Of a DNA stretch of 64,000 bases, positions 2 through 38,560 are shown one piece after another. The DNA lies in assembly GCF_004011865.1 (NCBI RefSeq), contig NZ_RKLP01000009.1:124001-188000 (forward strand), read 5' to 3'. A program made the position numbers and the translations under genes. Every line of letters starts with the position of its first letter. The first letter of the stretch is position 1. Origin of the DNA: Prescottella agglutinans. Its GTDB lineage: Bacteria > Actinomycetota > Actinomycetes > Mycobacteriales > Mycobacteriaceae. Under the pieces are notes generated by a model, which did not search any database, was not told where the DNA came from, and saw only the letters and a program-made list of their open reading frames with translations.

Positions 2-2758
2 GGGCGCGTGCTGCTGCCGGGTGTGCTGGTTCCTGCCGACGGAAGCCGAGACGGCGCGCTCGCGATCGACACCGCGTTCCACGCGGCGGACATCGCACTG
101 CTGCGCCAACTTGGCGCCTCCTCGGAACCTCCCGTCGGGGTGCCCGACAAGGAGGAACAGTGGTTCGCGGACTGGACTGAGGCCGCACGTTCGGCCTACG
201 TCGAGTGGCAGTCAGGGCGCGGCGTGAAGGTCACCGCGTCGAAGATCCGGATCTCGGCCGGCACGACCGTGTGCGGCCTCGACGTTGCGGCGCAGCTAAG
301 TGAGGATGGGCGTGCGGCGCTGACGACGTATGTGCTTCGGACGTCGACGACGCCGTGGAGGCTCGACTCCACCAGCAGTGCAGACGGTTCCGTCATGTCC
401 TTCGCGAACCCCGCGGTGTGGTGGTTGAAGCGGCATGGTGTGCTCGAAACCGCCTACGGCCGTCGTTCGGTGACGGATGCTGTCGCCTCGATCCCTGGGA
501 TTCCCGACGACCTGATTCCGGTGGCGCGTGTCACCCCGGAACATGCCAGTGCGCTCGAGCTTGCGGAGGACATCGACGCGCGTCGGTGGGCCCGCATCCT
601 CGTGAACCCGTGGCGGTTCCTCGACCAGGAGCATGTCAATCGGCTGTACGGCTATGCGGCGGAAGCGGGTGCACCCACCCCCGATGAGCTCGGGGTCACG
701 CCGTCGTCCGGAGCGACCTTGGCGGCGCCGTCCGAGACTTACGTGACGTGCACTTCCGCCGACTACGACGCCTTGGTCGACAACGGCTACCCGGCGGTGT
801 TGGTCGAGAACGATCGGCATGTCGTGATGCTCATCGAGCGCTGGGGCTTGATCGACGCGCGCGCCGTCATCAGCCGGAAGGTCCTCACGGCGGCATCGGG
901 TGAGCCTGTCGCACTTGCGGACAAGTTCCCGGGTATCCGTGCCTTCGTCACCTCGCCGCAAGACGTAGATCTCGTTCCCTGTTCGGCGATTTCGGTCGAG
1001 CTCGGAACGGGGGACAGCGCTGGGGTCACCGTGACCGACCACGATCTTCTTCGGGACGGTGAGCGGTGCGTGTACTTCCGCGACGACATGTCGGACGAGG
1101 TGCTGCTCGAACGTCTGGCTCGCGAGCTCCGGCTCTCGCTGTCCGCGGCAGACCAGACGAAGGTTCATCAGATCGGGGTCCGAGGCGCCGCGAGCCAGCT
1201 CCGCCGGAAGGTTCAGGCGGAGAAGGACGAGAACCGCAAGTTCGTAATGTTGGCCGGCGTCGATGCGCTGGAGAAGGAGATTCCGGCCGGTGCCAAGGCG
1301 CTGGCGGAACGTCGTCGCGGAAAGAAGCTGACACCCGACGAGATCGCAGGCATGGCCCGCGCCTCCCGCGGTGCTAGCTTGCTCAGTCGCCTCGCCCCGG
1401 CGATCGAGGAAAAGGGCGTCGTTCTTCCGAAGCTGTCGGGTGGCGTTCAGGCCTCCACCGCGGTCAAGGAGCTGGGGCTGTCGCCGGACTACGCGGGTGC
1501 ACGTGTCGCCGCGCCGGCCGCTCGGTTCCAGGTGATCGGTCCGGTCGCGCTGCCGCCGCTGCACGACTATCAGGAACGGGTCGTGACGAACGTTCTCGAG
1601 CTGCTGAAGTCGGGTGGCAAGAACCGTGGGATCGTCGCGTTGCCGACGGGTTCGGGCAAGACGCGGGTGGCGGTCGAATCGCTGATCCGTTTCGTGAAGG
1701 AGTCCGAGACCGAGCCGCTCATCATCTGGATCGCGCAGTCCGAGGAACTGTGCGAGCAGGCTGTCGACACCTGGTCGTACACGTGGTCGGCGCTGGCGCC
1801 TGCCGGTGCGCGTCTGACCATCAGTCGGCTCTGGGGAGCGAACGACGCCGCACCTGCAGAGGACGGTGCTCACCTCGTGGTGGCAACTGACGCCAAGCTG
1901 TTGTCGTTGGCGCGCAAGGGCAATCACGAGTGGCTGACCAACGCCGAAGTCGTCCTGGTCGACGAGGCACACACCTCGATCAGCAAGACGTACACCGAGC
2001 TGTTCAAGTGGCTCAAGCGGGGCGCCAAGGAACGTGACCGGGCTTTGCTCGGATTGTCGGCCAGCCCGTACCGCGGCCACAACGAGGAGCAGACCAAGGG
2101 CCTGATCAACCGCTACGACGCCAATCTGCTGACCGACGGTGTCTTCGACGGGGACCCCCACGAGGTCCTACAGGAGATGGGGATCCTGGCGCGGGTCAAG
2201 CACCTCGAGCTCGACGGCATGATGTTGACTCCAGAGAAGGCCCGTAAGACGTCGGAGGCAGAGTCGATGCACCTCGACGACTACCGCATCGACCTCAAGG
2301 CAGTCGCGGCAGACCATGACCGGAACAAGGGGATCCTTGATTCCCTGGAGAAGCTGCCGACGGACATGACGGCCCTCGTGTTCTCTGCTTCCGTCCAGCA
2401 CGCCCAGGTCCTCGCTGCGGTGCTGGCGAACGGGGGCATCCCCGCAGCGTCGATCGACGGCTACACCCCCGCCCCGGAGCGGCGGAGGTTGATCCAGAAG
2501 TTCCGGACGGGTGAAATTCGGGTCTTGACGAACTACAACGTTCTGTCGCAGGGCTTCGACGCCCCTAAGGTTGGTGCCGTCTACGTTGCGCGACCGACGT
2601 TCAGCCCCAACCGATATCAGCAGATGATCGGCCGCGGGCTGCGCGGCCCCGCGAACGGTGGCTCCGAGGAAGTGCTCATCGTGAACGTGAAAGACAACAT
2701 CGACGCGTTCGGCACCCAGTTGGCGTTCCATCACTTCGATGGGCTGTGGAGGCGATAA
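2..2758 (+). CDS. SF2 DEAH helicase of a DISARM-like island, 5' end outside window
   Basis: The reading frame is open to the left edge. The first possible start (GTG at 8) has no ribosome-binding site, so the protein probably begins upstream. Numbered from that GTG, 916 residues are visible. Residues 1-510 resemble nothing I can name. The C-terminal half is a complete SF2 helicase: Walker A LPTGSGKT at about 545-552, DEAH at 652-655, a SAS-type motif III near 682, and motif VI QQMIGRGLR at 871-879. Family knowledge makes it an ATP-driven DNA translocase or helicase; its substrate is unknown. The stop lies two bases before the UvrD-like gene, whose GGAGG ribosome-binding site sits inside this gene, so the two are surely co-transcribed. 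Helicases of this type often carry a long N-terminal ATPase or sacsin-like part, which may lie outside the window. Confidence 0.85.
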   Translation, partial: GRVLLPGVLVPADGSRDGALAIDTAFHAADIALLRQLGASSEPPVGVPDKEEQWFADWTEAARSAYVEWQSGRGVKVTASKIRISAGTTVCGLDVAAQLSEDGRAALTTYVLRTSTTPWRLDSTSSADGSVMSFANPAVWWLKRHGVLETAYGRRSVTDAVASIPGIPDDLIPVARVTPEHASALELAEDIDARRWARILVNPWRFLDQEHVNRLYGYAAEAGAPTPDELGVTPSSGATLAAPSETYVTCTSADYDALVDNGYPAVLVENDRHVVMLIERWGLIDARAVISRKVLTAASGEPVALADKFPGIRAFVTSPQDVDLVPCSAISVELGTGDSAGVTVTDHDLLRDGERCVYFRDDMSDEVLLERLARELRLSLSAADQTKVHQIGVRGAASQLRRKVQAEKDENRKFVMLAGVDALEKEIPAGAKALAERRRGKKLTPDEIAGMARASRGASLLSRLAPAIEEKGVVLPKLSGGVQASTAVKELGLSPDYAGARVAAPAARFQVIGPVALPPLHDYQERVVTNVLELLKSGGKNRGIVALPTGSGKTRVAVESLIRFVKESETEPLIIWIAQSEELCEQAVDTWSYTWSALAPAGARLTISRLWGANDAAPAEDGAHLVVATDAKLLSLARKGNHEWLTNAEVVLVDEAHTSISKTYTELFKWLKRGAKERDRALLGLSASPYRGHNEEQTKGLINRYDANLLTDGVFDGDPHEVLQEMGILARVKHLELDGMMLTPEKARKTSEAESMHLDDYRIDLKAVAADHDRNKGILDSLEKLPTDMTALVFSASVQHAQVLAAVLANGGIPAASIDGYTPAPERRRLIQKFRTGEIRVLTNYNVLSQGFDAPKVGAVYVARPTFSPNRYQQMIGRGLRGPANGGSEEVLIVNVKDNIDAFGTQLAFHHFDGLWRR

Positions 2759-2760
2759 CA

Positions 2761-4572
2761 ATGGCAGAACCGTTGGAACTGAACGACGAGCAGCGCGCCG
2801 TCGTCGAGGCTCCCATCGACGAGCGCCTCGTGGTGATCGCCGGTGCCGGCCAGGGCAAGACCGAGGTGGTTGCGGCACGGATCGGGTTCCTCGTCGAGGA
2901 GGAGCAGCTGTCGGCGTCCACCGAGGTGCTGGTGCTGAGCTTCTCCCGCGCCGCGGTGTCCGCGGTGCGGACGCGCCTGGAGTTGCGTGAGGTCGCCGCC
3001 GCGAACGTGCGCACCTTCGACTCGTTCGCCGGCCAGATTCTGCTCGACGCGGACATCGAGCCGATGGGTTCCTACGAGGCGCGGATCCGGCAGGCCACCA
3101 AGGTGCTTGACGAATCCGACGAGGTGCCCTTCGAGGTCGAGGACCTTCGTCACATCGTGATGGACGAGGTGCAGGACCTCGTCGGCGACCGGGCGGATTT
3201 CGTGCTGGCACTCCTGCGTCGGCTGGAACCGGACGTCGGTATCACCGCGCTGGGCGATCCGCTCCAGGGCATTTACGATTTCCAGCTTGGCGACTCGAAG
3301 AGCAAGACTTCCTCGCAGCAGGTCTTCGAGGCTTTGCGGTCGGAGTTCGGCGCGACGACGGTCGGTCTCGGCGAGAACTACCGGGCGCGGGGTGCCGATC
3401 CCCAGAAGGTCGTCGAGTTGGGTAACCAGCTGCGCGGTATGTCGGATGCGAGCGAAGCCGCAGACGCACTGGACGAGTTCGAGTCGAGTTTGCTCGAGCT
3501 GGGGGAGATCGAGGAATGGGCCGAGATGCTGTCGGTCGACGGTGTGACGACCGCGGTCCTGTGCGCAACGAACGGTGAGGTGCTCAGGGTTTCGAAGTAC
3601 CTCAACGAGAACGGTATTCGTCATGCGGTCCGGCGTCAGGCGCAGGACTTCGGTGCCGCGAAGTGGGTGGCGCAGGCTCTGGGCTCACTGGACGGCACGG
3701 TCGTTCGACGGTCCGAGGTCGAAGAAGCCCTCCAGCGGATCCTCGGCGAGGAGCGCGGTGACGACGCTTGGTACCTGCTCAAGGCGGCGGAGGGTGATGC
3801 GCGCCGTTTCGATGCGCTCAACCTTGCTCGGATCAGGTCTTTGGTGAAATCGGGCACCGTTCCACTAACTCTGACCGAGCCCGACTCGAGCAACGTCATC
3901 GTCTCCACGGTCCACAGGGCCAAAGGTCTCGAGTTCGACCGGGTCTTCCTCGTCGACCGTGCGTTCACATGGGAGGACGAGGATCCCTGGGCGGTCGTCC
4001 GGGCGCGGTACGTGGCGCTGAGCCGCGCCCGGGACACGATCTTCCGGTGCGAGCTGCCGAAGACCTATGCGTTGTACCAGGACATGCACTGGTTGCCCGG
4101 TCGCATCCTGGAGCGTGTCAACAAATGGAAGTCGACGAAGAAGCGCACGAAAGCCGTCGAGTTCAAGTGCGGAGACGTCGAGGTCGACGTACCGGTCACG
4201 ATCGCGAGCGACGCGCACGTCGTGCAGGCGAACCTCTATGCCCCGGATCTCGTGGGCGCACCGCTTGAGGCGGTCCTCGATATAGAGCGCTCGACGCAAG
4301 ACCTGCCCTCGTACGTTCTCAGCACGGAAGATGGACGGGCGGTCGGGCGGACGAGCGAGGCGTTCAACGAGTCGTTCGTCAAGGCGTTCAGCATGCGGGG
4401 CGGATCGTGGCCGGCGTCGTTGTCCGGCTTGTCGCTGGTCTCTGTCGAGACCGTTGCCGGCGATCCGCGACGCTCCCAGGAATTGGATGTCAGCTTTTCC
4501 GGACTGTGGCTCGCACCGCGAGTCATAGGTCTGGCACAACCTGATTGGTCGAACATGGAGGAGATTTCGTGA
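2761..4572 (+). CDS. UvrD/PcrA-like SF1 helicase
   Basis: This 603-residue protein has the SF1A (UvrD/Rep) helicase motifs in order: a Q-motif glutamine at 11, Walker A AGAGQGKT at 27-34, Walker B/motif II DEVQD from 135, motif V-like STVHRAKGLEF at 382-392 and motif VI YVALSRAR at 417-424. About 180 further residues follow the motor and match no domain I recognise. It should use ATP to unwind or translocate along DNA. The ATG at 2761 was chosen because GGAGG lies eight bases upstream. The gene sits between the DEAH helicase (two-base gap) and drmA (GTGA overlap), so it is translationally coupled into the DISARM-like operon. A housekeeping repair role is possible but less likely in this setting. 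Confidence 0.88.
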   Translation: MAEPLELNDEQRAVVEAPIDERLVVIAGAGQGKTEVVAARIGFLVEEEQLSASTEVLVLSFSRAAVSAVRTRLELREVAAANVRTFDSFAGQILLDADIEPMGSYEARIRQATKVLDESDEVPFEVEDLRHIVMDEVQDLVGDRADFVLALLRRLEPDVGITALGDPLQGIYDFQLGDSKSKTSSQQVFEALRSEFGATTVGLGENYRARGADPQKVVELGNQLRGMSDASEAADALDEFESSLLELGEIEEWAEMLSVDGVTTAVLCATNGEVLRVSKYLNENGIRHAVRRQAQDFGAAKWVAQALGSLDGTVVRRSEVEEALQRILGEERGDDAWYLLKAAEGDARRFDALNLARIRSLVKSGTVPLTLTEPDSSNVIVSTVHRAKGLEFDRVFLVDRAFTWEDEDPWAVVRARYVALSRARDTIFRCELPKTYALYQDMHWLPGRILERVNKWKSTKKRTKAVEFKCGDVEVDVPVTIASDAHVVQANLYAPDLVGAPLEAVLDIERSTQDLPSYVLSTEDGRAVGRTSEAFNESFVKAFSMRGGSWPASLSGLSLVSVETVAGDPRRSQELDVSFSGLWLAPRVIGLAQPDWSNMEEIS

Positions 4573-7500
4573 GTTCGCGGGACACATCCCTGGACGAGAA
4601 GTACCGGTTCAGGACGGAGATGGTCGAGGAGCTGGCGCGCGACGTCATAGGCCCTGGCGGTGGTGAGCACGAGATCATCTCGGAGGCACCGCTCGACCGG
4701 TACATAGTGGGCACGCTGTGGCCGATCGACGATCGGCCACAGGAGGCACCCGACCCGGACGGTGCCGACGCCGACGGTGAGGCGACAGAGGACAGCCCTG
4801 TCGCGCAGGCACTGATGCGGTACCCGTCGTCGGTCGGTTTGACCTTTTCGGTCCGGCTCGCCGATGCGACTGAGATCTCGATCGGGCTCAAGGGTGCGAG
4901 CTACACCAGAGTTGTGGTCGAAGGTGACGACGACGAAGCGAAGAAGACCCGAACGGATGACTGGCGGCGGATCCCGCTGGCGCTCGATCCGATTCCGGTG
5001 TCGGTCGCTGAGCCGGGGGTGTGGGGGCCGACGGAAGAGGTCGTCGACGGGCTCGAGCTGTACGTGTACGTCCGCCCTCCGCGTGATGGCGTCTCGACCG
5101 TCTCTGTTGCTTTGCGCAACACGAAGCCAGCGGTCAAAGGTGAGCTCCGGGATGACAAGTCATGGTTCCAGGTTGGAATCAGCGTTTCGACGGTGGTGCC
5201 GGCGATTGTCGACCGGAGTAACCACGTTAACGTCGGGCACGACGACGACCTCGACACGTCGGCTCTGCTCTATCGGAACAAACGGACCTTCGCGATTGGT
5301 CACGGATGCGCAGCCGAGTGGAACACTTCATCGGTTGGTGAGGCCGTGGACCACGTGGCGACGACGTTCCTTCCAACATACGAGGTGTATCGGGCCAGGC
5401 CGGGTCTCCTCGACGATTCCGTCAACTTGCGGATGTCGTTCTTGGCGAACGCTTCCGATGAAGAGGTCGTCGCCGGCCTGCGGGGCCTGGCGGGGCGCTA
5501 CCGCGAGTGGATCAAGCAGCTCGAGAGCGCCCTGACGTCCGGGGACGCGGATGTCCAAGACAAGTTGCTGGAGACGGCTCAGGATCACGTGAAGGCTGCG
5601 CGGACCGCAGCAGATCGCATCGAGGCCGGCATCGACCTGCTGCGCGACGACCCGGTGAGCATGAGGGCGTTCCGACTCTCGAATCAGGCCATGCAGTTGC
5701 AGCGTGCCCGTCAGGACTGGGTCCGCAAGGGAGCCAAGGGAACGGTCGGTGACGGCGCCGAGGACCGGTGGTACCCGTTCCAGATCGCCTACATTCTGCT
5801 GAACCTGCCCGGTTTGGCCGACCGACATCACCCGGATCGAGGCATCGCGGATCTGTTGTGGTTCCCTACCGGCGGTGGAAAGACTGAAGCGTATTTGGGG
5901 TTGGTGGCGTTTTCGATCCTGCACCGCAGGCTGAAGGATCCTGAGGCTCGAGGTGTAGCCGTGATTATGCGCTACACCCTTCGATTGCTGACGATCCAGC
6001 AGTTCGAGCGCGCAACAATGCTGATGTGCTCCCTGGAGACGGTCCGCAGGACAAACCAAGATCTTGGTGATCGCCGCTTCTCGATCGGACTGTGGGTTGG
6101 AAGTGCGGGTACGCCGAACACTTGGGACGACGCTCGGAAATCGTTGCTCAAACTCAAGGACGGGCAAGAGCTGCAGGAAAAGAATCCAGTTCAGCTCACT
6201 CAGTGCCCATGGTGTGGGGCCTTGTTGGATCACCGCAACTACAAGGCCGTGCGACACCCGGAGCGCTACCTTCACATCCAGTGCGGAACAACTGGTTGCG
6301 ATTTCGCGAACGGTCTCCCAGTGCATGTGGTCGACGACGACATCTACCGGGAGCGACCCGAGCTGATCCTGGGCACAGTTGACAAGTTTGCGAACATGGC
6401 GTGGAAGGAAGATGTCGGCAAGCTCTTCGCCCGCGACGGTATCGGCTATCCTCCGAATCTGATCATCCAGGATGAGCTGCACTTGATTTCGGGGCCGCTG
6501 GGGTCGATGGTCGGGCTGTACGAAACCGCTGTTGACGCGGCGTGCTCGGTGGATCCGCTCGGGGAGGTTGTAGACCGCGGCCGGCCGAAGGTGATTGCGT
6601 CAACTGCGACGATTCGGCGGGCCGAGAAGCAGATCCGCTCGGTGTTCGCGCGGACGGCTGCGCAGTTCCCGCCGCCGGGTATCAATCCTGACGAGTCGTT
6701 CTTCGCCGAACCCGCGCCACGCGATACGCACGGCACCCGGCAGTACGTCGGAATCATGTCGCCGGCAACGAGCCACGCGACCCTTCTCGTACGCGTATAC
6801 GCAGCGCTACTGCAGGCAGCCAAGGACATCGAGGGTGGTGACGAAACCCGTGATCCGTACTGGACGCTTCTCGGCTACTTCAACAGCCTTCGCGTGCTCG
6901 GAAGCGCCTACCTTCAGGTGGAGGGTGACGTTCGTGAGCGTTTGCAGGTGGTGTCGAACCGTCAAGGCACGGTGGCGCGCGAGTTGAATTTGGTTAACGA
7001 GCTCACCAGCCGTGTGGCGTCTTCGGACATTCCAAACCGTCTGAAGCAATTGGAGACCTCTCTGGAAGCAGGCAGGCCGGACGATGTCGTGTTGGCAACC
7101 AACATGATCTCGGTGGGGGTCGACATCGACCGGCTTGGGTTGATGACCGTAATGGGGCAGCCTCAGTCGAGCTCCGAGTACATCCAGGCAACCAGCCGGG
7201 TCGGCCGCAAGTTTCCCGGGCTTGTAGTGACGATCTTCAATGCGGCGCGGTCGCGTGACCGTTCGCATTACGAGAGCTTCGTCCCGTACCACCAGGCTCT
7301 GTATCGGGCGGTGGAAGCGACGAGCGCGACTCCGTTCGCGGCCCGGGCCCGTGACCGTGGTCTGCACGGGGTGCTGGTGTCGCTCGCTCGGCTTCTCGTC
7401 CCAGGCCTCGCGCCGGATACTTCGGCGTACTTGGCGGCGCAGAACTGGGATGACCTCTGCATGATCGGCGATTTGGTTGCGAAGCGTGCTGAAGCGGTGC

Positions 7501-7793
7501 TCACGGATCCCATCAACGGGCGGGACGACGAAAGCGACCGAGAGTGTGACGCAACAGCGGCGCAGGTAGGTGACCTGCTGGAGGTTTGGTCACAGGCTGG
7601 TGAGGTGAAGCCGCACATGCGCTACCAGAACGTCCGGAATCTCGATGCGGCCCTGCTGGTCGACCCAGCCGCGGCCCTGACAGATGACCACATCGAATAT
7701 TCCCAGAAGGAGGCTCCATGGCCGACGATGCGCAGTATGCGTGAAGTCGACGCCGAGAGCGGCCTGTTCGAGATTGCGATGAAGAGGAAGTAA
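4569..7793 (+). CDS. drmA: DISARM helicase DrmA
   Basis: DrmA is the SF2 helicase of DISARM, a defence system that restricts incoming phage DNA; with DrmB it forms a DNA-binding complex. This 1074-residue copy has Walker A TGGGKT at 434-439, a zinc site with CPWC at 546-549 and a second Cys pair near 576-581, the motif II variant DELHLISGPLGS from 635, and motif VI QATSRVGR at 873-880. DELHLISGPLGS is very typical of DrmA. The GTG at 4569 was chosen because GGAGGAG lies just upstream and it overlaps the preceding stop as GTGA. The gene ends TAATG, sharing one base with drmB. Base composition looks lower in GC than the later genes of the operon. Confidence 0.9.
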   Translation: MSSRDTSLDEKYRFRTEMVEELARDVIGPGGGEHEIISEAPLDRYIVGTLWPIDDRPQEAPDPDGADADGEATEDSPVAQALMRYPSSVGLTFSVRLADATEISIGLKGASYTRVVVEGDDDEAKKTRTDDWRRIPLALDPIPVSVAEPGVWGPTEEVVDGLELYVYVRPPRDGVSTVSVALRNTKPAVKGELRDDKSWFQVGISVSTVVPAIVDRSNHVNVGHDDDLDTSALLYRNKRTFAIGHGCAAEWNTSSVGEAVDHVATTFLPTYEVYRARPGLLDDSVNLRMSFLANASDEEVVAGLRGLAGRYREWIKQLESALTSGDADVQDKLLETAQDHVKAARTAADRIEAGIDLLRDDPVSMRAFRLSNQAMQLQRARQDWVRKGAKGTVGDGAEDRWYPFQIAYILLNLPGLADRHHPDRGIADLLWFPTGGGKTEAYLGLVAFSILHRRLKDPEARGVAVIMRYTLRLLTIQQFERATMLMCSLETVRRTNQDLGDRRFSIGLWVGSAGTPNTWDDARKSLLKLKDGQELQEKNPVQLTQCPWCGALLDHRNYKAVRHPERYLHIQCGTTGCDFANGLPVHVVDDDIYRERPELILGTVDKFANMAWKEDVGKLFARDGIGYPPNLIIQDELHLISGPLGSMVGLYETAVDAACSVDPLGEVVDRGRPKVIASTATIRRAEKQIRSVFARTAAQFPPPGINPDESFFAEPAPRDTHGTRQYVGIMSPATSHATLLVRVYAALLQAAKDIEGGDETRDPYWTLLGYFNSLRVLGSAYLQVEGDVRERLQVVSNRQGTVARELNLVNELTSRVASSDIPNRLKQLETSLEAGRPDDVVLATNMISVGVDIDRLGLMTVMGQPQSSSEYIQATSRVGRKFPGLVVTIFNAARSRDRSHYESFVPYHQALYRAVEATSATPFAARARDRGLHGVLVSLARLLVPGLAPDTSAYLAAQNWDDLCMIGDLVAKRAEAVLTDPINGRDDESDRECDATAAQVGDLLEVWSQAGEVKPHMRYQNVRNLDAALLVDPAAALTDDHIEYSQKEAPWPTMRSMREVDAESGLFEIAMKRK

Positions 7794-9526
7794 TGACGAC
7801 CGGAGCGAAGGCCCGTAGGGGTCAACTTCTCAGCACTTACGGGATCGGCGGCCTGTTCCCGTCGGAGACGACCAGCTACATGATCGTTGGCTTGGACGAA
7901 TGGAACGAGAATCGTGCTCGCCCGGTCAGCGAGCCACGGCTTGCGCGTTCGCTGCATGTGAGCGAGCTCAAGTCACCTCCTGCGGGCACGACACGTGACG
8001 TGCCCGTAATCCGGTTCCCTCTGACCCAGGTGTGTCCCAACCCGAAATGTCGCCGGATCGGCTCGTTGTTCGAGCTGTCCAAGGATTGGAACGTCGCCAA
8101 ATGTGCACAGTGCAAGGAAAAGGCGGAGCTGACGCCGTTCCGACTCATCGTCGCGTGTGCGAAGGGCCACATCGACGAGTTCCCGTACAAGTGGTGGCTC
8201 CACAAGGGCACGCCGGTTGTCGAAGGAGTCGAACACGAGATGAAGCTGAAGTCGCTCGGCCGCACGTCGTCGTTGGCGGATCTTGTGCTGACGTGCAGTT
8301 GTGGAGTTCCTCCCAAGTCCTTGGACGGGACTTTTGGCCCGAAGGCGCTCGCTGATCACGGGGCCTGCAATGGCGCTCGTATCTGGCTGGGAGCTCAGGC
8401 CAGGGAGACCTGTTCGGAGACGCCTCGAGTGCTCCAGCGAGGTGCGTCGAACGTGTGGTTCCCCGCGGTGCGGTCGGCCATCTCTATTCCGCCGTACTCG
8501 GAGGCGCTGGCGAAGTTCGTCGACAAGCACTGGATCTCGTTGGCAGACCCGGATGCGGTGACGCCGAGGCTGATCGAGAACATCGCTAAGTCTTCCAACG
8601 GCAAGCACTCGGCCGAGGCAATCACAGCGGAGCTTGAGCGTCGCCGCGGCGAGGAGACGGACGCGGACTTGAGTGAGGCCGCACTGCGTCGCGACGAGTT
8701 CAGTGCGCTGTTGGCGGGCCGTGAGGAGAACGGCGTCGACTCGGATTTCGTGTGCCTGCCGATGCGCTTGGATTCGTCGCTGCCGAAGCTGGTCACCGAG
8801 GTGCGCAAGGTGACGCGCCTGCGTGAGGTACGGGCCTTGTATGGGTTCTCCCGGCTTAGTGGTGTGGCTGAACTTGGCGCCGAGGGCCTGTGCGACTTGT
8901 CTCATGCTCGGCAGCACTGGCTGCCTGCAGTCGAGGTGATCGGCGAAGGTGTATTCGTCGCGCTGGACCGGGGTGAACTCACGAACTGGTCCAAGATGCC
9001 GTTTGCGCAGCGGCGCCGCAAGCTGCTTCAGGCGGCCGCCGACCGACGGGCGGCCGAGTTCGGCCGGCCGGCGCCGCATGTCGATATCGTGCAGGTGGCC
9101 GTACACACTCTCGCGCATGTCCTCATCGATCAGCTGTCGCTGGATGCGGGTTACCCGGCCTCGTCGTTGCGCGAGCGCCTCTACGTCGACGACGACATGG
9201 CCGGCATTCTCGTGTACACGGCGAGCTCGGACTCGGCGGGCAGCCTCGGTGGCGTGGCGTCTCAGGCATCACCGGACGGCTTCGCTGGCGCGCTCCGTGA
9301 GGGGCTGAGGCGACTCTCATGGTGCTCGTCCGACCCGGTATGTATCGAATCGACGGCGTCCGGCACAGATGCGCTCAACCTGGCAGCCTGCCACGCCTGC
9401 GTGCTGGTGCCGGAAACGTCTTGCGAGCTGAACAACACCTTCCTCGACCGGGCACTTCTGTTCGGTACCCATGAGAGGGACGAGGAGTTCGAGGGCCTGT
9501 TCAGCACGTTCGTCGCTGCAGGCTGA
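7793..9526 (+). CDS. drmB: DISARM protein DrmB (DUF1998)
   Basis: DrmB is the DUF1998-bearing partner of DrmA in DISARM. The N-terminus has the family opening (RGQLLSTYGIGGLF). It is followed by two cysteine pairs, C81/C86 and C104/C107, likely to bind zinc, and a CSCG further on. The DUF1998 part fills roughly residues 430-570, with HTLAH at 438-442, a GSLGGVAS segment, and C-terminal cysteines (CSSDPVC, CHACVLVP) as in MrfB/DrmB proteins. At 577 residues it has the expected length. It starts on the ATG overlapping the drmA stop by one base, so DrmA and DrmB should be made in a fixed ratio. A 126-base gap with a hairpin follows it, the only real break in the operon. Confidence 0.9.
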   Translation: MTTGAKARRGQLLSTYGIGGLFPSETTSYMIVGLDEWNENRARPVSEPRLARSLHVSELKSPPAGTTRDVPVIRFPLTQVCPNPKCRRIGSLFELSKDWNVAKCAQCKEKAELTPFRLIVACAKGHIDEFPYKWWLHKGTPVVEGVEHEMKLKSLGRTSSLADLVLTCSCGVPPKSLDGTFGPKALADHGACNGARIWLGAQARETCSETPRVLQRGASNVWFPAVRSAISIPPYSEALAKFVDKHWISLADPDAVTPRLIENIAKSSNGKHSAEAITAELERRRGEETDADLSEAALRRDEFSALLAGREENGVDSDFVCLPMRLDSSLPKLVTEVRKVTRLREVRALYGFSRLSGVAELGAEGLCDLSHARQHWLPAVEVIGEGVFVALDRGELTNWSKMPFAQRRRKLLQAAADRRAAEFGRPAPHVDIVQVAVHTLAHVLIDQLSLDAGYPASSLRERLYVDDDMAGILVYTASSDSAGSLGGVASQASPDGFAGALREGLRRLSWCSSDPVCIESTASGTDALNLAACHACVLVPETSCELNNTFLDRALLFGTHERDEEFEGLFSTFVAAG

Positions 9527-12451: not shown

Positions 12452-12454
12452 GCC

Positions 12455-25817: not shown

Positions 25818-26456
25818 TCATGGCTGCGAGTTTCCCGCAGATGGCTGCTGCCTGGCCTTGAACTGGTCGAACCTCGCCCGTAGGACGTACAAGTGGTCGA
25901 CAAGGGCTTCAGCGAAGTCAAGAGCATCCTCGGCGTCTTGCGCTGTCACATCCTTTCCGAAATGTGCTCCAGCGTTGCCTGTTATGCGGAGAAGGTTTGC
26001 CCATTCAGCCAGGACTCCGTCGATCTTGCCCTGTTCCTTCATTTCCGCGAGGTTAGCTGCCAAGGTCTTTTTCGTCGCGCCCTGATCTAGGCAAGTTCCC
26101 TCCAGCGTCCGGCGCACCATGACCACGGTTGCGCGGTAAGCCTTTGCATCGAAGCACCTTCGGGCTTCTGTGAACTCGGCTTGTATGTCTCGCGGAACGA
26201 CGATGCTGAATCGACGCGGGGACGGGTAGTAAATCCCAGGAGGGTCGGCATCGTAGCCGGCCCCGAAGTCTTCACGCACCTGGACAATCGGTGCTGCACA
26301 GGTGTCATGGTCGCACTGCAGGAACACGAACTCGGCTGGTGGACCATCTTCTGGGATGTAATGCTCGATCCGCCCGTGGATGTCACTCTTGGTTGGTTCT
26401 CCACACACTGGGCAGAGGAAAGCTCTGGCTTGTCCGGGCTTGCCGTTCGTACTCAT
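25818..26456 (-). CDS. DUF4145 protein with N-terminal zinc ribbon
   Basis: The 212-residue protein has an N-terminal zinc-ribbon-like part (CPVC, then CDHDTC) and a C-terminal helical DUF4145 domain. The conserved DUF4145 segments are visible: ARRCFDAKAYRATVVMVRRTLE, split here by residues typical of the family, and LLRITGNAGAHFG. DUF4145 domains are often found beside or fused to restriction enzymes, and I recall them being grouped with HEPN-like helical folds. The R...N...H arrangement would fit that, but I do not claim RNase activity. The gene is lower in GC than its surroundings. It is last in the minus-strand defence block, 155 bases after the preceding stop, so it may have its own promoter. 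Confidence 0.75.
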   Translation of the reverse strand: MSTNGKPGQARAFLCPVCGEPTKSDIHGRIEHYIPEDGPPAEFVFLQCDHDTCAAPIVQVREDFGAGYDADPPGIYYPSPRRFSIVVPRDIQAEFTEARRCFDAKAYRATVVMVRRTLEGTCLDQGATKKTLAANLAEMKEQGKIDGVLAEWANLLRITGNAGAHFGKDVTAQDAEDALDFAEALVDHLYVLRARFDQFKARQQPSAGNSQP

Positions 26457-26611: not shown

Positions 26612-27508
26612 CTAGACAACGGATTTTTGCTTAGCTTCATCCTCATGACTAGCCGCCGCTCTGCGTCGGGCAGATCGTGTGTCTAGCCGTTCGGCCGCCG
26701 CGTGCGCATACTCCCACCCGCGCTCAGCAAGGACTCGCGCACCGGCTAATGACAAGAGAGATGTGTCTGCACATGGCGGGCCAACCGGTAGTTCGTGCCA
26801 GTCGACCGGCGACGTCGCGCCGCCGCGGACCCACGTCTGCAGGTTGCGAAAATCGTCGCGCTGGAAGTTCGTCCGCACCTCCGGTGGCGAGCCGGCTGTG
26901 ACGAGGTTGAGCACGCGAGCAAGGTCGTTGACGTCGTCGGCCGATAGCGCCGTCTCTCCGTCCTCAGGCGAGATCACGTCGACGAGGGCAAGTGCGAGCG
27001 AACGACACCGGACCAGCGGGCGATGGAGATAGCTGTTCGGCAGGTCCTGGCGGATGAACGCGCGTACGACGGGGCCGTAGTCGGCGCCGTTACGGAACAA
27101 CTCGGCGCCCCACCACAGTCGTGCGAACGCCTGCTTGTGAATCTCTCCGCGCCAACGGTTCTCGACGATTCCCTTGCGACCTTCCCAGCGCCACTCGACG
27201 TACCAGTGGAATCGAACCGCCAGCCACGCCCACACGTCGGGATCGGAGGCTTCCGCCCGCGTCAGGCGCAGGGCGTAGTGGAGTCGCGGCGCCAACCATC
27301 CGTCACTGGTCGACGGATCACGCCACGTGTCGAGACGCGCAGAGAACTCCTCCATGAGGCCTGCGAGGACATCGATTCCGATCGCCGCTCCGCCGCGCCG
27401 GGTGACGTTCTCGGAATCGCTGAGCCACGCGTTGTCCGCGATGAGCTGCGATCGGGTAGCAGGGTCGAGGCGGCGGACGTAGCGCCGCAAGGTTTCGTGG
27501 TCAGCCAC
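26612..27508 (-). CDS. Uncharacterised protein, possibly DUF6339-like
   Basis: This 298-residue protein has no motif I can tie to a reaction. It is rich in Trp and Arg (WLAVRFHWYVEWRWEG near the middle), has no membrane segment, and ends in a charged tail. From memory it resembles the actinobacterial DUF6339 family, but I hold this loosely. The GTG at 27508 follows GAGGAG and overlaps the upstream gene by eight bases, so its translation is coupled to that gene and, through it, to the GHKL ATPase. The three genes are probably one functional unit. A 155-base gap separates it from the DUF4145 gene. Confidence 0.7.
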   Translation of the reverse strand: MADHETLRRYVRRLDPATRSQLIADNAWLSDSENVTRRGGAAIGIDVLAGLMEEFSARLDTWRDPSTSDGWLAPRLHYALRLTRAEASDPDVWAWLAVRFHWYVEWRWEGRKGIVENRWRGEIHKQAFARLWWGAELFRNGADYGPVVRAFIRQDLPNSYLHRPLVRCRSLALALVDVISPEDGETALSADDVNDLARVLNLVTAGSPPEVRTNFQRDDFRNLQTWVRGGATSPVDWHELPVGPPCADTSLLSLAGARVLAERGWEYAHAAAERLDTRSARRRAAASHEDEAKQKSVV

Positions 27509-28460
27509 GGCGGATCTCCTCGGTCACCATCGCCAGTGTGTTCGGTACACCCGCAAGGACGTCGATCGCGACGTCGATGTGGGTCCACAACTCCGCGGAT
27601 TCGGCACGCTTGCCGTGTGAGTCGTGTAGGCGTTGGTACAGTTCGTCGACGGATGCGAAGTGGGGGATCGTATCGGCGACCGCCTCACACACCTGACGGA
27701 ACAGCGGGTCGGAGGGCGGCGACGGCTCGTCGTCCTCGCTCGCGATCTCCACTGCCGCGGCACGGAACATCGTCGCCAGGGTGTACCTCGCGATCTGCGA
27801 ACCGAGAAGCTCCCGGGTCCGCCGGCGCTCCAGTTTCGCCGTCTCCGACGACAGCAGATCCTGGAACCCCGGAATCGCACTGTTCAGCAGCAGCATTGGC
27901 CGCGTGCCGGACAGATCCAGCACCGCCGGAGCGTCGGGGCTCTGTCGTGCGACCAGCGGAGAGTCCGACGCACCGAAGTCGATCCACGATTGGGAGATGG
28001 GTGGCTGTCCCGGCTTGACGGGCGCGGCCCCCGGTTCGACGACGATCGTCCAAGGGATCGAGCGTCCCACGACCCGGGGAGTGCCGCCGTGGTCCGACGC
28101 GACCTCGGCGACGAGCGTCGCGGTGCCCGCCAGGTCGTCGCGGGAGATGTCGACGGTTCCGCGTAGCTCGTTCGGCCTTGCGCCGCTCGGGGCGAGCGGG
28201 AACGGTATCCGGACGCTGGTGGAACTGCACGACAGCAGGGCGTAGCCGCTCAGCTCGGCGTCGAGTCCGGTGGGGCGTTTCTCGTCGGTCCGTGCGGTGA
28301 GTGTGAAGGACAGCGTCGACCAGTCGCCCACGTCCGCGAGGCTCATCCGGAACGTTTCGGTGTCGACCGACGGCAGGGTGCCGGGCAGGTCGGACTCGAC
28401 TTCGGTGATCTCGCACAACCATTCGCCGGCGAAGGTCGGCCACGGGTAGCGCACGCTCAT
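27501..28460 (-). CDS. Uncharacterised protein of the GHKL cassette
   Basis: I do not recognise this 319-residue protein. The N-terminal half looks beta-rich (short alternating segments, many Ser/Thr/Val), and the C-terminal half is predicted helical and acidic, so two domains are likely. No zinc, nucleotide-binding or nuclease motif is visible. The ATG at 28460 overlaps the stop of the GHKL ATPase as ATGA, and its own stop overlaps the next gene by eight bases. This three-gene coupling suggests a complex with fixed proportions. A longer reading frame running upstream to 28655 is only an artefact of overlap with the ATPase gene. Confidence 0.7.
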   Translation of the reverse strand: MSVRYPWPTFAGEWLCEITEVESDLPGTLPSVDTETFRMSLADVGDWSTLSFTLTARTDEKRPTGLDAELSGYALLSCSSTSVRIPFPLAPSGARPNELRGTVDISRDDLAGTATLVAEVASDHGGTPRVVGRSIPWTIVVEPGAAPVKPGQPPISQSWIDFGASDSPLVARQSPDAPAVLDLSGTRPMLLLNSAIPGFQDLLSSETAKLERRRTRELLGSQIARYTLATMFRAAAVEIASEDDEPSPPSDPLFRQVCEAVADTIPHFASVDELYQRLHDSHGKRAESAELWTHIDVAIDVLAGVPNTLAMVTEEIRRG

Positions 28461-30376
28461 GCCGTGCCGCCCTTCGACTGGGTGGTGGTCACGTTTCGAA
28501 GCTGGACGTCGACGGCGGCGTCGGCGGCGGGGATGGGCAGGTCTGCGGTCGACACCCCGGTCACCACTGCCTGAACGAATCGGCCCCGTTCCTGGTGCTC
28601 CAGGAGCACGGTGCCGTCCTCGACCTTGGCATCCTCCGAGTGGAGATCCTCCCACTCGACTTCCTGCCCGCGACCGTCCAAACCGACGAAGTACAGTGCG
28701 GGGCTCAGCGCCCAGCCGCCCGGCTGGTTACGGGCCTTGATGCGGAAGGTCAGGTGCCAGCGGCCGTCGAGGACCTTCCAGTCGGTGATATCCACCGCCG
28801 GTTTGCGGGTCGCGGTTCCGGTGGACGCGCCGGCCCCGGGCTCGCCGCGCAGGAAGCTGAGGTGTTTGAACACCGCCGTCGGCGGCTTGCTGTCCGCCGG
28901 TGGGGGAGCACCGAACAACTCGATCAGCTTCGCGGCGACGTCCTTCTCGATCGCCTGCAGGTTCGGTACCCACGGGGCGACGTAGTGTGCGCTCAGGCTC
29001 GACTGCGAGCTCTTGTTGCGACCGCCCCTCGGGATCCACTGGTCGTGGGCGGGCGGCTCTGCGAACCGCAGGAAGTCGTCCGCCCACCGGTCTTCGGCGG
29101 ACGACGAATCCGGGCTGACCGCGCCACCGGCAAGCAGAAACGCGTGGTAGGTGTGGTTCTCGAACGTCCGGTCCAGTGTCTGGACGACCATCTCCGGCTG
29201 ACGCAGCAGGCACACCTTGTTCTCGAGCGGGTCCTTCTGCTTGTCTGACTTGGTGACGACCAGTTTCGCGTTGTGTACGAACTTCGGGTGACCCGATCCT
29301 GACTTGCGCTTGGCGATCGCGATCGGGATGTCCCGCGCGACAACCGAATACGTCTTATCGAGCGTCTCGTCGAGGTCACCCTCGTCGAACCGTCGCAGCG
29401 CGCGCACGAGTTCCGTGTACGTGTCCTCGGGATCGACGACGGTGTCGAGCTCACGAACCCCGTCGTTGATCACCTCGATCCGCACCTGCAGTCGCCGTCG
29501 GGCGAGAAGCGGCCAGAAGCTCTCCTCGATTCCGGCCCGCAGGTCCTCGGCCATCTTGACCAGGCCGTCGACGGTGTGACCGCGCTCGGGCTCGTCGGGG
29601 TCGTAGAAGCCCACGATCATCGCCGAGGTACCTGGTCGGCTTCCGTCGCGGCGCAGGTGGAGCGTCTCGACGAGGTCCTCGGTCGCCCACGTCGAGGTGA
29701 CGTTGCCCTTCGTCCCGGCGACGCCGAAATAGCCTCGCCCCTGGTACGACTGCTCGCCCAGCCGGTGCACCACGCCCTGATTGACACCGAACAACCGGTT
29801 GCGGGTCTGACCGTCGACCGCGTCGCTCTCTGCGACAACCGAATTGAACAGCACGGTCTGGATACGCGAGAACCGCCAGTAGACCGCCTTGCCGAGACCG
29901 AAGCTGCCACCGGAGGTCTCGTTCTTCCCGCTGAACAGGTCGAGCCGACACAACTTGATGAAGTTGCCGAAGTCCGCCGAGTCGATGTCGGAGAACTCCG
30001 GTCCGGTGAGCCCTCGGCATCCGTAGTCGGAGACCTTCAACAGCACGAGTGGGTCCGGGTGCGACAGGGCCTCGAGGCCGGTCTTGATGTGGCCGGCGGT
30101 GACGGCGCCGGTCGACTCGCTGCTCATCGCGCGCAGGTGCGGCTCGAGCTCCTCGGACCAGTTCAGGGCGCGCAGGAAGTCTGCGCGTGCCTGCCCGCTG
30201 AGCCGGATGAACGAGTAGACGAGGCTTGGGTTCTCCTCCGAGCGAGCATCGTTGGTGTTCTGCGTGCTCTCCCGGGCGAGGGAGGCCAGCCCGGCATTCA
30301 CCGTCCACTGGTTGGCGTTGCCGTAATTGCCGTAGGTACTGCTCTGCTTGTCCCATTGCCAGGCCAACTCGGCCAC
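28457..30376 (-). CDS. GHKL (Hsp90/MutL/MORC-type) ATPase
   Basis: The N-terminal 180 residues carry the Bergerat-fold ATP-binding motifs. Counted from the GTG at 30376, these are the N-box LARESTQNTNDA (E36, N40), the G1 box VSDYGCRGL (D117, G119) and the G2 box GGSFGLGKA at 156-164. In GHKL proteins ATP binding closes a dimer clamp, as in MutL and MORC. About 450 residues follow without a recognised domain, and no histidine-kinase phosphoacceptor or receiver part is visible. The GTG start is preferred because GAGGGAG lies four bases upstream; a TTG at 30394 would add six residues. It is coupled by ATGA to the next gene. Its place in the island suggests a sensor or DNA clamp, which is inference. 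Confidence 0.8.
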   Translation of the reverse strand: MAELAWQWDKQSSTYGNYGNANQWTVNAGLASLARESTQNTNDARSEENPSLVYSFIRLSGQARADFLRALNWSEELEPHLRAMSSESTGAVTAGHIKTGLEALSHPDPLVLLKVSDYGCRGLTGPEFSDIDSADFGNFIKLCRLDLFSGKNETSGGSFGLGKAVYWRFSRIQTVLFNSVVAESDAVDGQTRNRLFGVNQGVVHRLGEQSYQGRGYFGVAGTKGNVTSTWATEDLVETLHLRRDGSRPGTSAMIVGFYDPDEPERGHTVDGLVKMAEDLRAGIEESFWPLLARRRLQVRIEVINDGVRELDTVVDPEDTYTELVRALRRFDEGDLDETLDKTYSVVARDIPIAIAKRKSGSGHPKFVHNAKLVVTKSDKQKDPLENKVCLLRQPEMVVQTLDRTFENHTYHAFLLAGGAVSPDSSSAEDRWADDFLRFAEPPAHDQWIPRGGRNKSSQSSLSAHYVAPWVPNLQAIEKDVAAKLIELFGAPPPADSKPPTAVFKHLSFLRGEPGAGASTGTATRKPAVDITDWKVLDGRWHLTFRIKARNQPGGWALSPALYFVGLDGRGQEVEWEDLHSEDAKVEDGTVLLEHQERGRFVQAVVTGVSTADLPIPAADAAVDVQLRNVTTTQSKGGTA

Positions 30377-30433: not shown

Positions 30434-32059
30434 CTAGACCAGCTTCACGTTGTCGAAATACTCCGAATGGCCGGCGACCTTCGCAGAGACATCCCGGTCC
30501 TTGACGTTCGGGTACTTGCAGTCGAATCCGCGCAGGCCGACGGCGACGCTTCCGGCCTGCGCCGCGGCGTACATGTACTTGAGGACTCCGTCGTTGGTCG
30601 AGTAGTAGTTGTTCACCGTTCCTGTCACCGCCTCGCTGAGTGGTCGCCAGTCGGCCTTCTTGCCCTCTGCGGCGCCGAGGAGGTGCATTGCCTCGATCTT
30701 CGGGGCATCCTTGCTCGTCCCCAGGGTCTCCGCTGCTGTGATCATCGCGCGGGCGCCGAGGCTGTGGCCGACGAGTATGTAGCGCGCAACCTTGGTACGG
30801 GCCAGGATCCCGGCGAGTGCGACGCCGGTGCGGTCCGCGCGGACCACCGCCGTGTGCCAGGGATTCTTGGCGAGGTCGCCGATCAACAGCGCGGGTGCGA
30901 TCGGCGCGAGCTTCTTCGCGGCCATCTTGCCTGCCTTCGCTGCCGCGCCGCCCACGGCGGCCAGAGCCTGATTCGCGCCCACGTTCTTCACGGCCAGGGC
31001 CGCGAGATTGCCGAGCTCCTTGCTACCCCAGCGCAGCCGATAGATCGGTGAATCCGGGTACCGTTCCTCGACCATCTGCATGGCCGATTTCCAGTTCTGG
31101 TCCTTCTCCGTCGTGAACCCCCGCGCCACGATGACCGGTGTACCGGGCCCGTCCCGGAACTTCTCGATGGCGAACGATTTGTCCTCGCTGACATAGGCGT
31201 TGGTGATGTTGGCTCCCAGCGCGCCTCCCAGCGCGGCTCCGGCCGCGGCGACGACATAGGTACCGCCGACCATGCCGAGCCCGCCGGCAGCCACCGAGCC
31301 GCCACCGAGCAAGGCCAGCCCATAGCTGGTGGCGGCAGCGCCCGTGTAGCCGCCGACCAGGGTGCCGATAGCGCCGCCGACCGCCGGTGCGGCCATCAGA
31401 CCACCCGTCCCGACCACGCCGGCGGCGAACACACCGGCCAGCGCGTACTTCGAACCACGACTCAGGTTGCTCTTGTCGAACACGCGGAGCTGCTCGTAAT
31501 CGTCGACCGTGTCGATCTTGGCGGTAGCACGCTCGAAGCTGGGAAGCTCGTGGCGATGCTCAGCGCAGAACCTTGGGATTCGCACCGACCCGGAACCACG
31601 TGTCGCCATGTTGTCGCACTGCGGAGCCGCGCAAGTGAGCGTCGGCGCGCCGCACGTTGCACACAGGTAGGCAGGGACAGAAATCCGTCCGGTCTTCACC
31701 TTGCGGTGATCGGTGTGGGCGTAACACGCCGAGCACCAGCCAGTTCGAGTGTCGTCACCGATCCCGTCGATCAGCTTTGCGATCTCCGCCGCGACGTCCG
31801 CGTGCGCATCGGCCTGCTTGCGGTGACTTTCCTTCTTCTTCTCATCCTTGAAGCGGCGAAAGAGCTTCTCGTTCTTCGCGTACGCCCAGGCGTTGTGGAT
31901 CAGCGCCGGGTTCGAAGTCATCGGGCTGTCGCCCTCGACCGTCGGTTCGACAGCCGTGATGGTCCCGGTGAGCCGCAGAAGAAGCCCCAGCGGCGAGCGC
32001 ACCTCGCAGATCATACCGTCGTGTGATACCGGCGTGAAGCTCACGGCATCGCTTGTCAC
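30434..32059 (-). CDS. DUF726-type alpha/beta hydrolase with zinc ribbons and hydrophobic segments
   Basis: The 541-residue protein has three parts. Near the N-terminus are cysteine pairs (CSACYAH, CATC, CAAPQC) that look like zinc ribbons. Next, a very Gly/Ala-rich hydrophobic stretch of about 90 residues could span or insert into membrane. The C-terminal part is a DUF726/TMCO4-like alpha/beta hydrolase with the nucleophile elbow GHSLGA (Ser 433), preceded by the family's TPVIVARGF and YRLRWGSKEL. The substrate is unknown; a lipid or ester is a reasonable guess. The GTG at 32059 was chosen because AGGGGG precedes it. It lies 57 bases before the GHKL gene and 144 bases after the DUF4011 helicase, on the same strand. 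As an island member it could be a membrane-damaging effector, which is inference. Confidence 0.78.
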   Translation of the reverse strand: MTSDAVSFTPVSHDGMICEVRSPLGLLLRLTGTITAVEPTVEGDSPMTSNPALIHNAWAYAKNEKLFRRFKDEKKKESHRKQADAHADVAAEIAKLIDGIGDDTRTGWCSACYAHTDHRKVKTGRISVPAYLCATCGAPTLTCAAPQCDNMATRGSGSVRIPRFCAEHRHELPSFERATAKIDTVDDYEQLRVFDKSNLSRGSKYALAGVFAAGVVGTGGLMAAPAVGGAIGTLVGGYTGAAATSYGLALLGGGSVAAGGLGMVGGTYVVAAAGAALGGALGANITNAYVSEDKSFAIEKFRDGPGTPVIVARGFTTEKDQNWKSAMQMVEERYPDSPIYRLRWGSKELGNLAALAVKNVGANQALAAVGGAAAKAGKMAAKKLAPIAPALLIGDLAKNPWHTAVVRADRTGVALAGILARTKVARYILVGHSLGARAMITAAETLGTSKDAPKIEAMHLLGAAEGKKADWRPLSEAVTGTVNNYYSTNDGVLKYMYAAAQAGSVAVGLRGFDCKYPNVKDRDVSAKVAGHSEYFDNVKLV

Positions 32060-32203
32060 TGGGTCCCCCTGTCCGTTTCGTTGCAGATGCATCAGAATGC
32101 CCGGTGCGGGCGCACGTCACCTTCAATTTGCCCAGTTGTGCAGAGCTGCAACGATATTCGAGATCGTCTGCCTGGGGCTTGAAGGGCGGATATATGTCTC
32201 CGG

Positions 32204-38212: not shown

Positions 38213-38560
38213 TGGCCTCTCCCACGCCCTGCACGCCACCGGCGGTCGAAGCCGGTGTGCCGGCCGCAAATGCGGACCGTCCGGACGGAATCGTACGACC
38301 AGCGCCAACAGGCTCGGCGGCAGACCGGCAGTTTCGATGGTTGGTGAATCGAGTGCACCCCGAATCCACGTCACAGAACGTCAGGAATCGAGGAAGGCCT
38401 GGAGTGGTTCTGCCTCCGGCGAATCTCTCGCAGCGCTAGTACCCCGCCGAGGGTGAACCGCACGGCTCGGGCCTTCCGGCCCCATTCGTTTGGAGTAGCC
38501 TCTTCGAGGCCGAGTCCGATGGGGGCATCGTGACGGTTCGGCTTCAAGAGGGGGGAGAGT
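38213..38560. promoter_or_regulatory. Divergent intergenic region between defence block and T7SS-like cassette
   Basis: The 348 bases separate the minus-strand DUF4011 helicase from the plus-strand SAV_915-like gene, so promoters for both should lie here. GGGAGAGG precedes the helicase start (minus strand) and GGGGGAGAGT immediately precedes the GTG at 38561. I see no convincing -35/-10 pair, operator, tRNA or integrase site. The short minus-strand frame reaching 38374 adds nothing recognisable. Confidence 0.4.

What the first reader, a model, noticed from the sequence alone, without database searches (positions are those of the whole stretch)
26612..30376. Coupled three-gene GHKL cassette with unknown partners
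A GHKL ATPase is joined by a 4-base overlap to an unfamiliar 319-residue gene, which overlaps an unfamiliar 298-residue gene by 8 bases. GHKL proteins are known in defence (for example MutL-like MzaA), but I know no system with these two partners. It could be a free-standing system.
Basis: partly seen in the sequence, partly recalled or inferred. Interest (0 to 1): 0.7.

Follow-up and report, generated by a model that had tools for sequence, protein, structure and literature searches.

The report
paraMORC2 ATPase trio of restriction-modification systems
Three tightly linked genes encode a MutL/MORC-like ATP-driven clamp protein with two dedicated partner proteins, a unit conserved from archaea to Streptomyces and almost always found beside a DNA cytosine methyltransferase and anti-phage helicase genes, so it is most likely a reusable module of phage-restricting defence systems; its ATPase family was predicted in 2008 and a related trio is already listed as an untested defence candidate.

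Summary
On the minus strand, A (GHKL, 639 aa, 30376-28457), B (319 aa, 28460-27501) and C (298 aa, 27508-26612) overlap by 4 and 8 bases. The trio is strongly conserved: A-B-C order recurs in actinobacteria, haloarchaea, cyanobacteria, planctomycetes and myxobacteria, with a 4-base A/B overlap in 61 of 66 loci. An independent search from C alone found an A gene two positions upstream in 13 of 13 loci. It is not unknown. A carries the published ExxxH signature of paraMORC2 (Iyer 2008; 90/93 homologues) and lacks the MORC motif. C is Pfam DUF6339. A sister trio is PADLOC candidate PDC-M33A/B/C, although the window B does not match that B model. It is probably not free-standing: 65/78 homologous loci carry a C5-cytosine methyltransferase within 3 kb (median gap 20 bp), plus Vsr and interchangeable DISARM-like or Mza-like (Z1 helicase/DUF4420 nuclease) genes. 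In this genome the C5 methyltransferase lies 29 kb away in the same island. Predicted B (Ig-like sandwich plus helices) and C (all-alpha, no PDB match) show no nuclease fold. Best reading: an ATP-gated DNA clamp plus two adaptors, serving a cytosine-methylation restriction system. Function is inferred, not shown.

The parts
28457..30376 (-). A: paraMORC2-type GHKL ATPase, 639 aa; N-box E36-N40-D43, D117, G-box GGSFGLGK 156-163, ExxxH 440-444
   Evidence: (PDC-M33A 1.1e-21)
27501..28460 (-). B: 319 aa; predicted Ig-like beta-sandwich (about 10-144) plus C-terminal helical domain (about 199-318); no family match
26612..27508 (-). C: DUF6339 protein, 298 aa; predicted all-alpha (pLDDT 94, pTM 0.91), no PDB fold match found
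2..2758 (+). putative partner (cluster 5): C-terminal part of a 1545-aa protein (starts at window -1879) with Tiamat/TmtA-like N-terminus and SF2 helicase; homologues flank the trio in 33/78 loci
2746..4572 (+). putative partner (cluster 7): UvrD-family helicase; homologues near the trio in 26/78 loci
4545..7793 (+). putative partner: DrmA-like helicase; homologues near the trio in 47/78 loci
7793..9526 (+). putative partner: DrmB-like (MZB/DUF1998); homologues near the trio in 18/78 loci

Best explanation
The trio encodes the ATPase-clamp module of a restriction-modification-like antiphage system based on 5-methylcytosine. Proposed working: (1) A, a paraMORC2 GHKL ATPase, dimerises on ATP binding and closes around DNA as MutL/MORC/gyrase-type GHKL proteins do. 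(2) B (Ig-like sandwich plus helices) and C (all-alpha DUF6339) are obligate adaptors that bind A and contact DNA or partner subunits. (3) Host DNA is marked by the companion C5 methyltransferase. (4) On DNA without the mark, the ATP-closed complex recruits or licenses a helicase/nuclease set (DrmA/DrmB/UvrD/SF2 helicase, or Z1 helicase + DUF4420 nuclease, sometimes Vsr) that destroys it. The trio is the constant part and the effector set is exchangeable. Here the likely partners are the C5 methyltransferase and the DISARM-like set 29 to 17 kb away in the same island. Shown: gene order, overlaps, motifs, conservation, adjacency to C5 methyltransferases, effector swapping on the tree. Inferred: clamp action, complex formation, methylation sensing, DNA destruction.
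For: Trio order conserved across phyla; an A gene two positions upstream of C in 13/13 loci found from DUF6339 alone. C5 methyltransferase within 10 kb in 65/78 loci, median gap 20 bp, 50/65 within 500 bp, against a background in which only 29/60 genomes of the class have any. paraMORC2 ExxxH signature in 90/93 A, 1/21 MzaB-type and 8/427 other proteins; paraMORCs were predicted to be R-M ATPases working with C5 methylases, Vsr, SFII helicases and RE-fold nucleases (PMC2292703). In divergent loci the trio forms one run of genes Vsr-Z1 helicase-DUF4420-A-B-C-C5MT or parts of it (L114, L119-L122). The tree needs at least 12 changes of DISARM-like and 6 of Mza-like partners. Own genome has an intact C5 methyltransferase at window -3189..-2092, 66% identical to one that follows the trio in Amycolatopsis. 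A paraMORC3 protein (VcSduA) was shown to need its GHKL ATPase for phage defence (PMC12137116), and a Z1-helicase R-M system (CglI) was shown biochemically (PMC4267653).
Against: No experiment on any paraMORC2, B or DUF6339 protein was found. In this window the C5 methyltransferase is not adjacent, and ARMADA-like genes lie between. 13/78 loci lack a C5 methyltransferase within 10 kb and 6/78 lack every scored partner (two of these, L031 and L069, lie on contigs of only 10 and 6 kb). No complex was modelled. Neighbourhood may reflect shared island residence rather than one machine.
Confidence: 0.6

Rival explanations
1. The trio is a self-contained three-gene defence system (the PDC-M33 reading): A senses infection by ATP-driven conformational change, and B/C carry an unrecognised effector activity, with C a possible new enzyme fold.
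For: PADLOC defines the sister lineage as a three-gene candidate. Six loci show no scored partner within 10 kb. C is a confidently predicted fold without a PDB match and keeps conserved charged residues (D69, R84, R107, R130) from archaea to actinobacteria.
Against: 65/78 loci place a C5 methyltransferase within 3 kb, usually within 500 bp. No catalytic motif was recognised in B or C. At least two of the six partner-less loci lie on short contigs.
Confidence: 0.18
2. The trio is a maintenance or repair companion of C5 methyltransferases, analogous to the Dcm-Vsr-MutL-UvrD repair of 5mC deamination, rather than a restriction component.
For: Adjacency to C5 methyltransferases (65/78), Vsr in 29/78 and UvrD-type helicases; MutL-like GHKL ATPase.
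Against: Vsr is present in only 29/78; DISARM-like or Mza-like restriction modules occur in 62/78 (47 + 22 - 7); no MutS-like partner was noticed; strong recombination of effector sets resembles defence modules.
Confidence: 0.1
3. A is mainly a regulator controlling expression of the island or of the methyltransferase.
For: Many homologues of A carry an N-terminal XRE-type helix-turn-helix, and a Streptomycetaceae group carries a whole sigma-70 (regions 2-4) plus XRE fusion.
Against: The window A and its clade start at the GHKL domain with no helix-turn-helix; all GHKL catalytic residues are nearly invariant, which a pure repressor would not need; the fusion is confined to one part of the tree.
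Confidence: 0.07
4. The trio here is a stranded remnant: formerly part of the C5MT-helicase-DrmA-DrmB unit, split by insertion of the ARMADA-like block and no longer functional with it.
For: Related loci have the same genes contiguous (L014: cluster 5, 7, DrmA, DrmB, A, B, C, Vsr, C5MT), whereas here 17 kb of ARMADA-like genes lie between and the trio is inverted.
Against: All three ORFs and their overlaps are intact with conserved residues kept; the C5 methyltransferase is intact.
Confidence: 0.05

Closest known systems
paraMORC2 GHKL ATPases in R-M operons (Iyer, Abhiman and Aravind 2008, PMC2292703)
   Same: ExxxH motif, intact GHKL motifs, no MORC motif, neighbours C5 methylase, Vsr, Z1 helicase and RE-fold (DUF4420) nuclease; occurs in cyanobacteria and Gram-positives
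   Different: The text read describes the ATPase and helicase/nuclease neighbours; it does not name the obligate B and DUF6339 partners (its figure was not available). The window copy has no adjacent methyltransferase
PADLOC candidate system PDC-M33 (M33A, M33B, M33C)
   Same: Same gene order; M33A matches A over residues 30-260 (E=1.1e-21) and M33C weakly matches C; sister trio in Paenarthrobacter and Deinococcus plasmids matches A and B strongly and C in Deinococcus, also beside C5 methyltransferases
   Different: Window B has no hit to M33B and profile comparison finds no similarity; the window subfamily is a distant relative and no experimental report was found
MzaABCDE / MORC-Z1-DUF4420 systems
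   Same: GHKL ATPase in a methylation-linked defence operon; Z1 (MzaC) and DUF4420 (MzaD) genes occur with the trio in 22/78 loci
   Different: MzaB-type GHKL has the MORC motif (21/21) and lacks ExxxH (20/21); A is the reverse; BLASTP finds no similarity
DISARM
   Same: DrmA/DrmB homologues and C5 methyltransferases accompany the trio (47/78 with DrmA)
   Different: The trio is not a defined DISARM component, and most such loci have DrmA without DrmB
Shedu VcSduA (paraMORC3)
   Same: GHKL ATPase required for phage defence (PMC12137116)
   Different: Single protein with fused Shedu nuclease domain; A has no nuclease domain detected and has two partner genes

Membership tests
paraMORC2 (Iyer 2008) | Intact GHKL ATP-binding motifs | tested here: met
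   E36, N40, D43, G122, G156, G157, G160, G162 at 100% and D117 at 98% in 83 homologues
paraMORC2 (Iyer 2008) | Conserved ExxxH motif in C-terminal part of S5 domain | tested here: met
   E440-PPA-H444; 90/93 A proteins, 1/21 MzaB-type, 8/427 background
paraMORC2 (Iyer 2008) | Lacks the MORC motif GhXhhpXXRhl | tested here: met
   absent in window A, 1/93 in family, 21/21 in MzaB-type
paraMORC2 (Iyer 2008) | S5-fold domain after the GHKL domain | not tested
paraMORC2 (Iyer 2008) | Neighbourhood with DNA methylase, Vsr, SFII helicase, RE-fold nuclease | tested here: met
   C5MT 65/78, Vsr 29/78, Z1 21/78, DUF4420 15/78; single gene runs in L114, L119, L121
PADLOC PDC-M33 | Match to M33A model | tested here: met
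   E=1.1e-21, residues 30-260 of a 627-position model
PADLOC PDC-M33 | Match to M33B model | tested here: not met
   no hit at E<=1; hhalign probability 0.4% against a two-sequence profile
PADLOC PDC-M33 | Match to M33C model | tested here: met
   weak, E=0.0019; 6.3e-7 for homologue L045
MORC / MzaB | MORC-specific motif | tested here: not met
Shedu (paraMORC3) | Fused Shedu/RE-fold nuclease domain | tested here: not met
   no Pfam hit in A
DISARM | Trio genes are defined DISARM components | tested here: not met
   no Drm model matches A, B or C
any | Anti-phage activity | not testable with these tools
   needs phage challenge

The most novel reading that the evidence does not exclude
The trio is a universal ATP-gated, methylation-sensing adaptor that has been re-paired many times with unrelated helicase/nuclease effector sets (DISARM-like, Mza-like, possibly ARMADA), with C (DUF6339) a new protein fold acting as sensor or coupling subunit: a plug-in chassis for restriction systems.
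Probability: 0.3. Interest if true: 0.72.

Novelty: new member of a known kind. Interest (0 to 1): 0.45.

Why it matters
MORC and paraMORC ATPases were proposed in 2008 to be the R-M ancestors of eukaryotic chromatin MORCs, yet among the paraMORC families the papers read here report an experiment only on a paraMORC3 protein (a Shedu). This locus defines the compact conserved unit of the paraMORC2 branch (ATPase + Ig-like adaptor + DUF6339) and its near-constant companion, a C5 methyltransferase, which makes a direct test simple: three genes, with and without the methyltransferase and effector set. If the trio proves to be an exchangeable chassis, it would help explain how large helicase-based defence islands recombine. 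Uncharacterised DUF6339 would also gain a role.

Tried and rejected
Searching phage and viral collections for A: IMG/VR gave no confirmed relative; one weak match in a 6-kb unannotated 'Bacteriophage sp.' record, not pursued. PDB sequence profiles for A, B and C gave nothing meaningful (the ClpC1 hits for B are at E>0.1). Fold searches: C gave no Foldseek match at E<0.001, and the best second-look match was Z 3.7 over 63 residues to cyclin H, within noise; B matched many Ig-like sandwiches at Z<8, read only as 'Ig-like', not as kinship. Homology of window B to PDC-M33B could not be shown; a phylum search for M33B found no match even in controls, so it is uninformative. MzaB/MORC identity for A was rejected by the motif test. 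My first reading of 9653-25711 as DISARM class 1 was dropped: gene order fits ARMADA type II (PMC12458937). Papers naming PDC-M33 or DUF6339: none in the held library.
Full report
Observation. The three ORFs are present exactly as described: A 30376-28457 (639 aa), B 28460-27501 (319 aa), C 27508-26612 (298 aa), all minus strand, overlapping by 4 and 8 bases. Codon-position G+C supports all three as real genes.

What the proteins are. A has no Pfam or NCBIfam hit but carries all GHKL motifs: E36-x3-N40-x2-D43, D117, G122 and GGSFGLGK 156-163, nearly invariant in 83 homologues. It matches PADLOC candidate PDC-M33A (E=1.1e-21). Iyer, Abhiman and Aravind (2008, PMC2292703) defined paraMORC2 by a strongly conserved ExxxH motif at the end of the S5 domain and by lack of the MORC motif. 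Both hold here: E440-PPA-H444, with the pattern in 90/93 A proteins against 1/21 MzaB-type and 8/427 other proteins, and the MORC motif in 1/93 A against 21/21 MzaB-type. C is DUF6339. B matches no family. AlphaFold models are confident. C (pLDDT 94, pTM 0.91) is almost all helix with no recognisable PDB match. B (pLDDT 93.7, pTM 0.70) is an Ig-like beta-sandwich plus a helical C-terminal domain. Neither resembles a nuclease. The absence of a match for C shows neither a new fold nor a function.

Conservation. A scan of 84,980 genomes found 271 relatives of A, of which the best 78 loci were kept. With my own gene calls and profiles, B and C follow A in nearly all loci with enough sequence. The A/B overlap is 4 nt in 61/66, the B/C overlap 4 nt in 42/59 and 8 nt in 7/59. 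Plasmid relatives in haloarchaea, Synechococcus, Paenarthrobacter and Deinococcus keep the order; C is broken up in the Paenarthrobacter record. An independent search started from DUF6339 in 297 genomes of the class gave 13 other loci, and every one has an A-type gene two positions upstream with a gene between.

Company. 65/78 loci carry a C5-cytosine methyltransferase within 10 kb; the gap to the trio is at most 3 kb in all 65, at most 500 bp in 50, median 20 bp. For comparison, 29 of 60 genomes of the class hold any such gene, so a chance meeting in a 20-kb stretch should be rare. Further neighbours are DrmA-like helicases (47), a Tiamat-like/SF2 helicase (33), Vsr nucleases (29), UvrD helicases (26), Z1 helicases (21), MORC-type MzaB (21), DrmB (18) and DUF4420 RE-fold proteins (15). 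In divergent loci the trio lies in one run of genes with Z1 helicase and DUF4420, often with Vsr and C5 methyltransferase (L114, L119, L121), which is the operon type predicted for paraMORC2. On a tree of A the partner sets change repeatedly, at least 12 times for DISARM-like and 6 for Mza-like by well-supported branches alone, while the trio stays. The nearest relatives of the window copy illustrate this: Gordonia has Mza-type partners, Williamsia has DISARM-type.

This window. The trio sits in a defence island: C5 methyltransferase (window -3189..-2092, just outside; intact, 66% identical to one following the trio in Amycolatopsis), a 1545-aa helicase, UvrD helicase, DrmA, DrmB; then 9653-25711, whose order (BrxHII/SNF2-type helicase, PglX-like methylase, YprA/DruE-like helicase, GajB-like helicase) fits ARMADA type II (PMC12458937) and includes homologues of genes next to the trio in Mycolicibacterium L017 and Williamsia L020; then a DUF4145 gene, the trio, a DUF726 gene and a DUF4011/MTES_1575 helicase-nuclease. 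The first five match, in content and largely in order, genes contiguous with the trio in Actinoplanes L014. The window copy therefore looks like that unit with an ARMADA block between its halves and the trio inverted (inference).

Mechanism (inferred). GHKL proteins of the MutL/gyrase/MORC type close as ATP-bound dimers on DNA; B and C, always co-encoded, are best read as obligate adaptors. The constant company of C5 methyltransferases suggests self/non-self discrimination by 5mC, and the changing helicase/nuclease sets suggest exchangeable effectors. Precedents: VcSduA, a paraMORC3-type Shedu, needs its GHKL ATPase for phage defence (PMC12137116), and the Z1-helicase R-M system CglI couples ATP hydrolysis to cleavage near unmethylated sites (PMC4267653). 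No step has been shown for paraMORC2.

Known or new. A belongs to a family predicted in 2008, a sister trio is already catalogued as PDC-M33, and C has a Pfam number; no paper on PDC-M33 or DUF6339 was found. What this work adds is that the trio is the invariant unit, that window-type B is not recognised by the M33B model, the near-constant adjacency to C5 methyltransferases, the repeated re-pairing, and confident models of B and C. I file it as a new member of a known kind.

Limits. Gene calls are heuristic; the 78 loci are the best-scoring of 271 and heavy in Streptomyces; counts are not corrected for relatedness; flanks are 10 kb at most; the overlap counts use start codons chosen as nearest to the previous stop; the tree is a quick search; A was not modelled; the S5 domain is taken from the family description.

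Noticed in passing
window 9653-25711 (+): Four consecutive genes (SNF2/BrxHII-type helicase, Eco57I/PglX-type methylase, 2117-aa YprA/DruE-like helicase, UvrD/GajB-like helicase with an N-terminal extension) match the order of the recently described ARMADA type II defence system rather than DISARM class 1; the RelE-like N-terminal domain expected for the last one was not tested.
   Followed up: partly
L038:8195-11854 (also L002, L043, L044, L047, L051, L062, L063, L065, L070, L073, L075, L080): In a group of Streptomycetaceae, A is a roughly 1200-aa fusion of a complete sigma-70 factor (regions 2, 3, 4), an XRE helix-turn-helix and the paraMORC2 ATPase, with DrmA/DrmB/NERD-helicase genes divergently upstream. 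Pfam-confirmed for L038; read from sequence for L002; the others by length and tree position.
   Followed up: partly
L045:4573-9249 and window -1879..2758: The 1545-1590-aa helicase that accompanies the trio has a Sacsin/Tiamat(TmtA)-like N-terminus, possibly a second GHKL ATPase, fused to an SF2 helicase.
   Followed up: no
window 30434-32092 (-): DUF726 alpha/beta-hydrolase gene with zinc-finger-like N-terminus ends 57 bp before A on the same strand; not found with the trio elsewhere, function in a defence island unclear.
   Followed up: no
window 25818-26456 (-): DUF4145 protein weakly matching the PADLOC PD-T7-4 model, 155 bp downstream of C.
   Followed up: no
window 32204-38374 (-): 2056-aa DUF4011/AAA/MTES_1575/DUF3320 helicase-nuclease, strong PADLOC PDC-S37 and Hhe matches: another defence gene in the island.
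   Followed up: no
L012:9823-11493: In the Paenarthrobacter plasmid the C (DUF6339) gene appears split by a frameshift in the deposited sequence.
   Followed up: no
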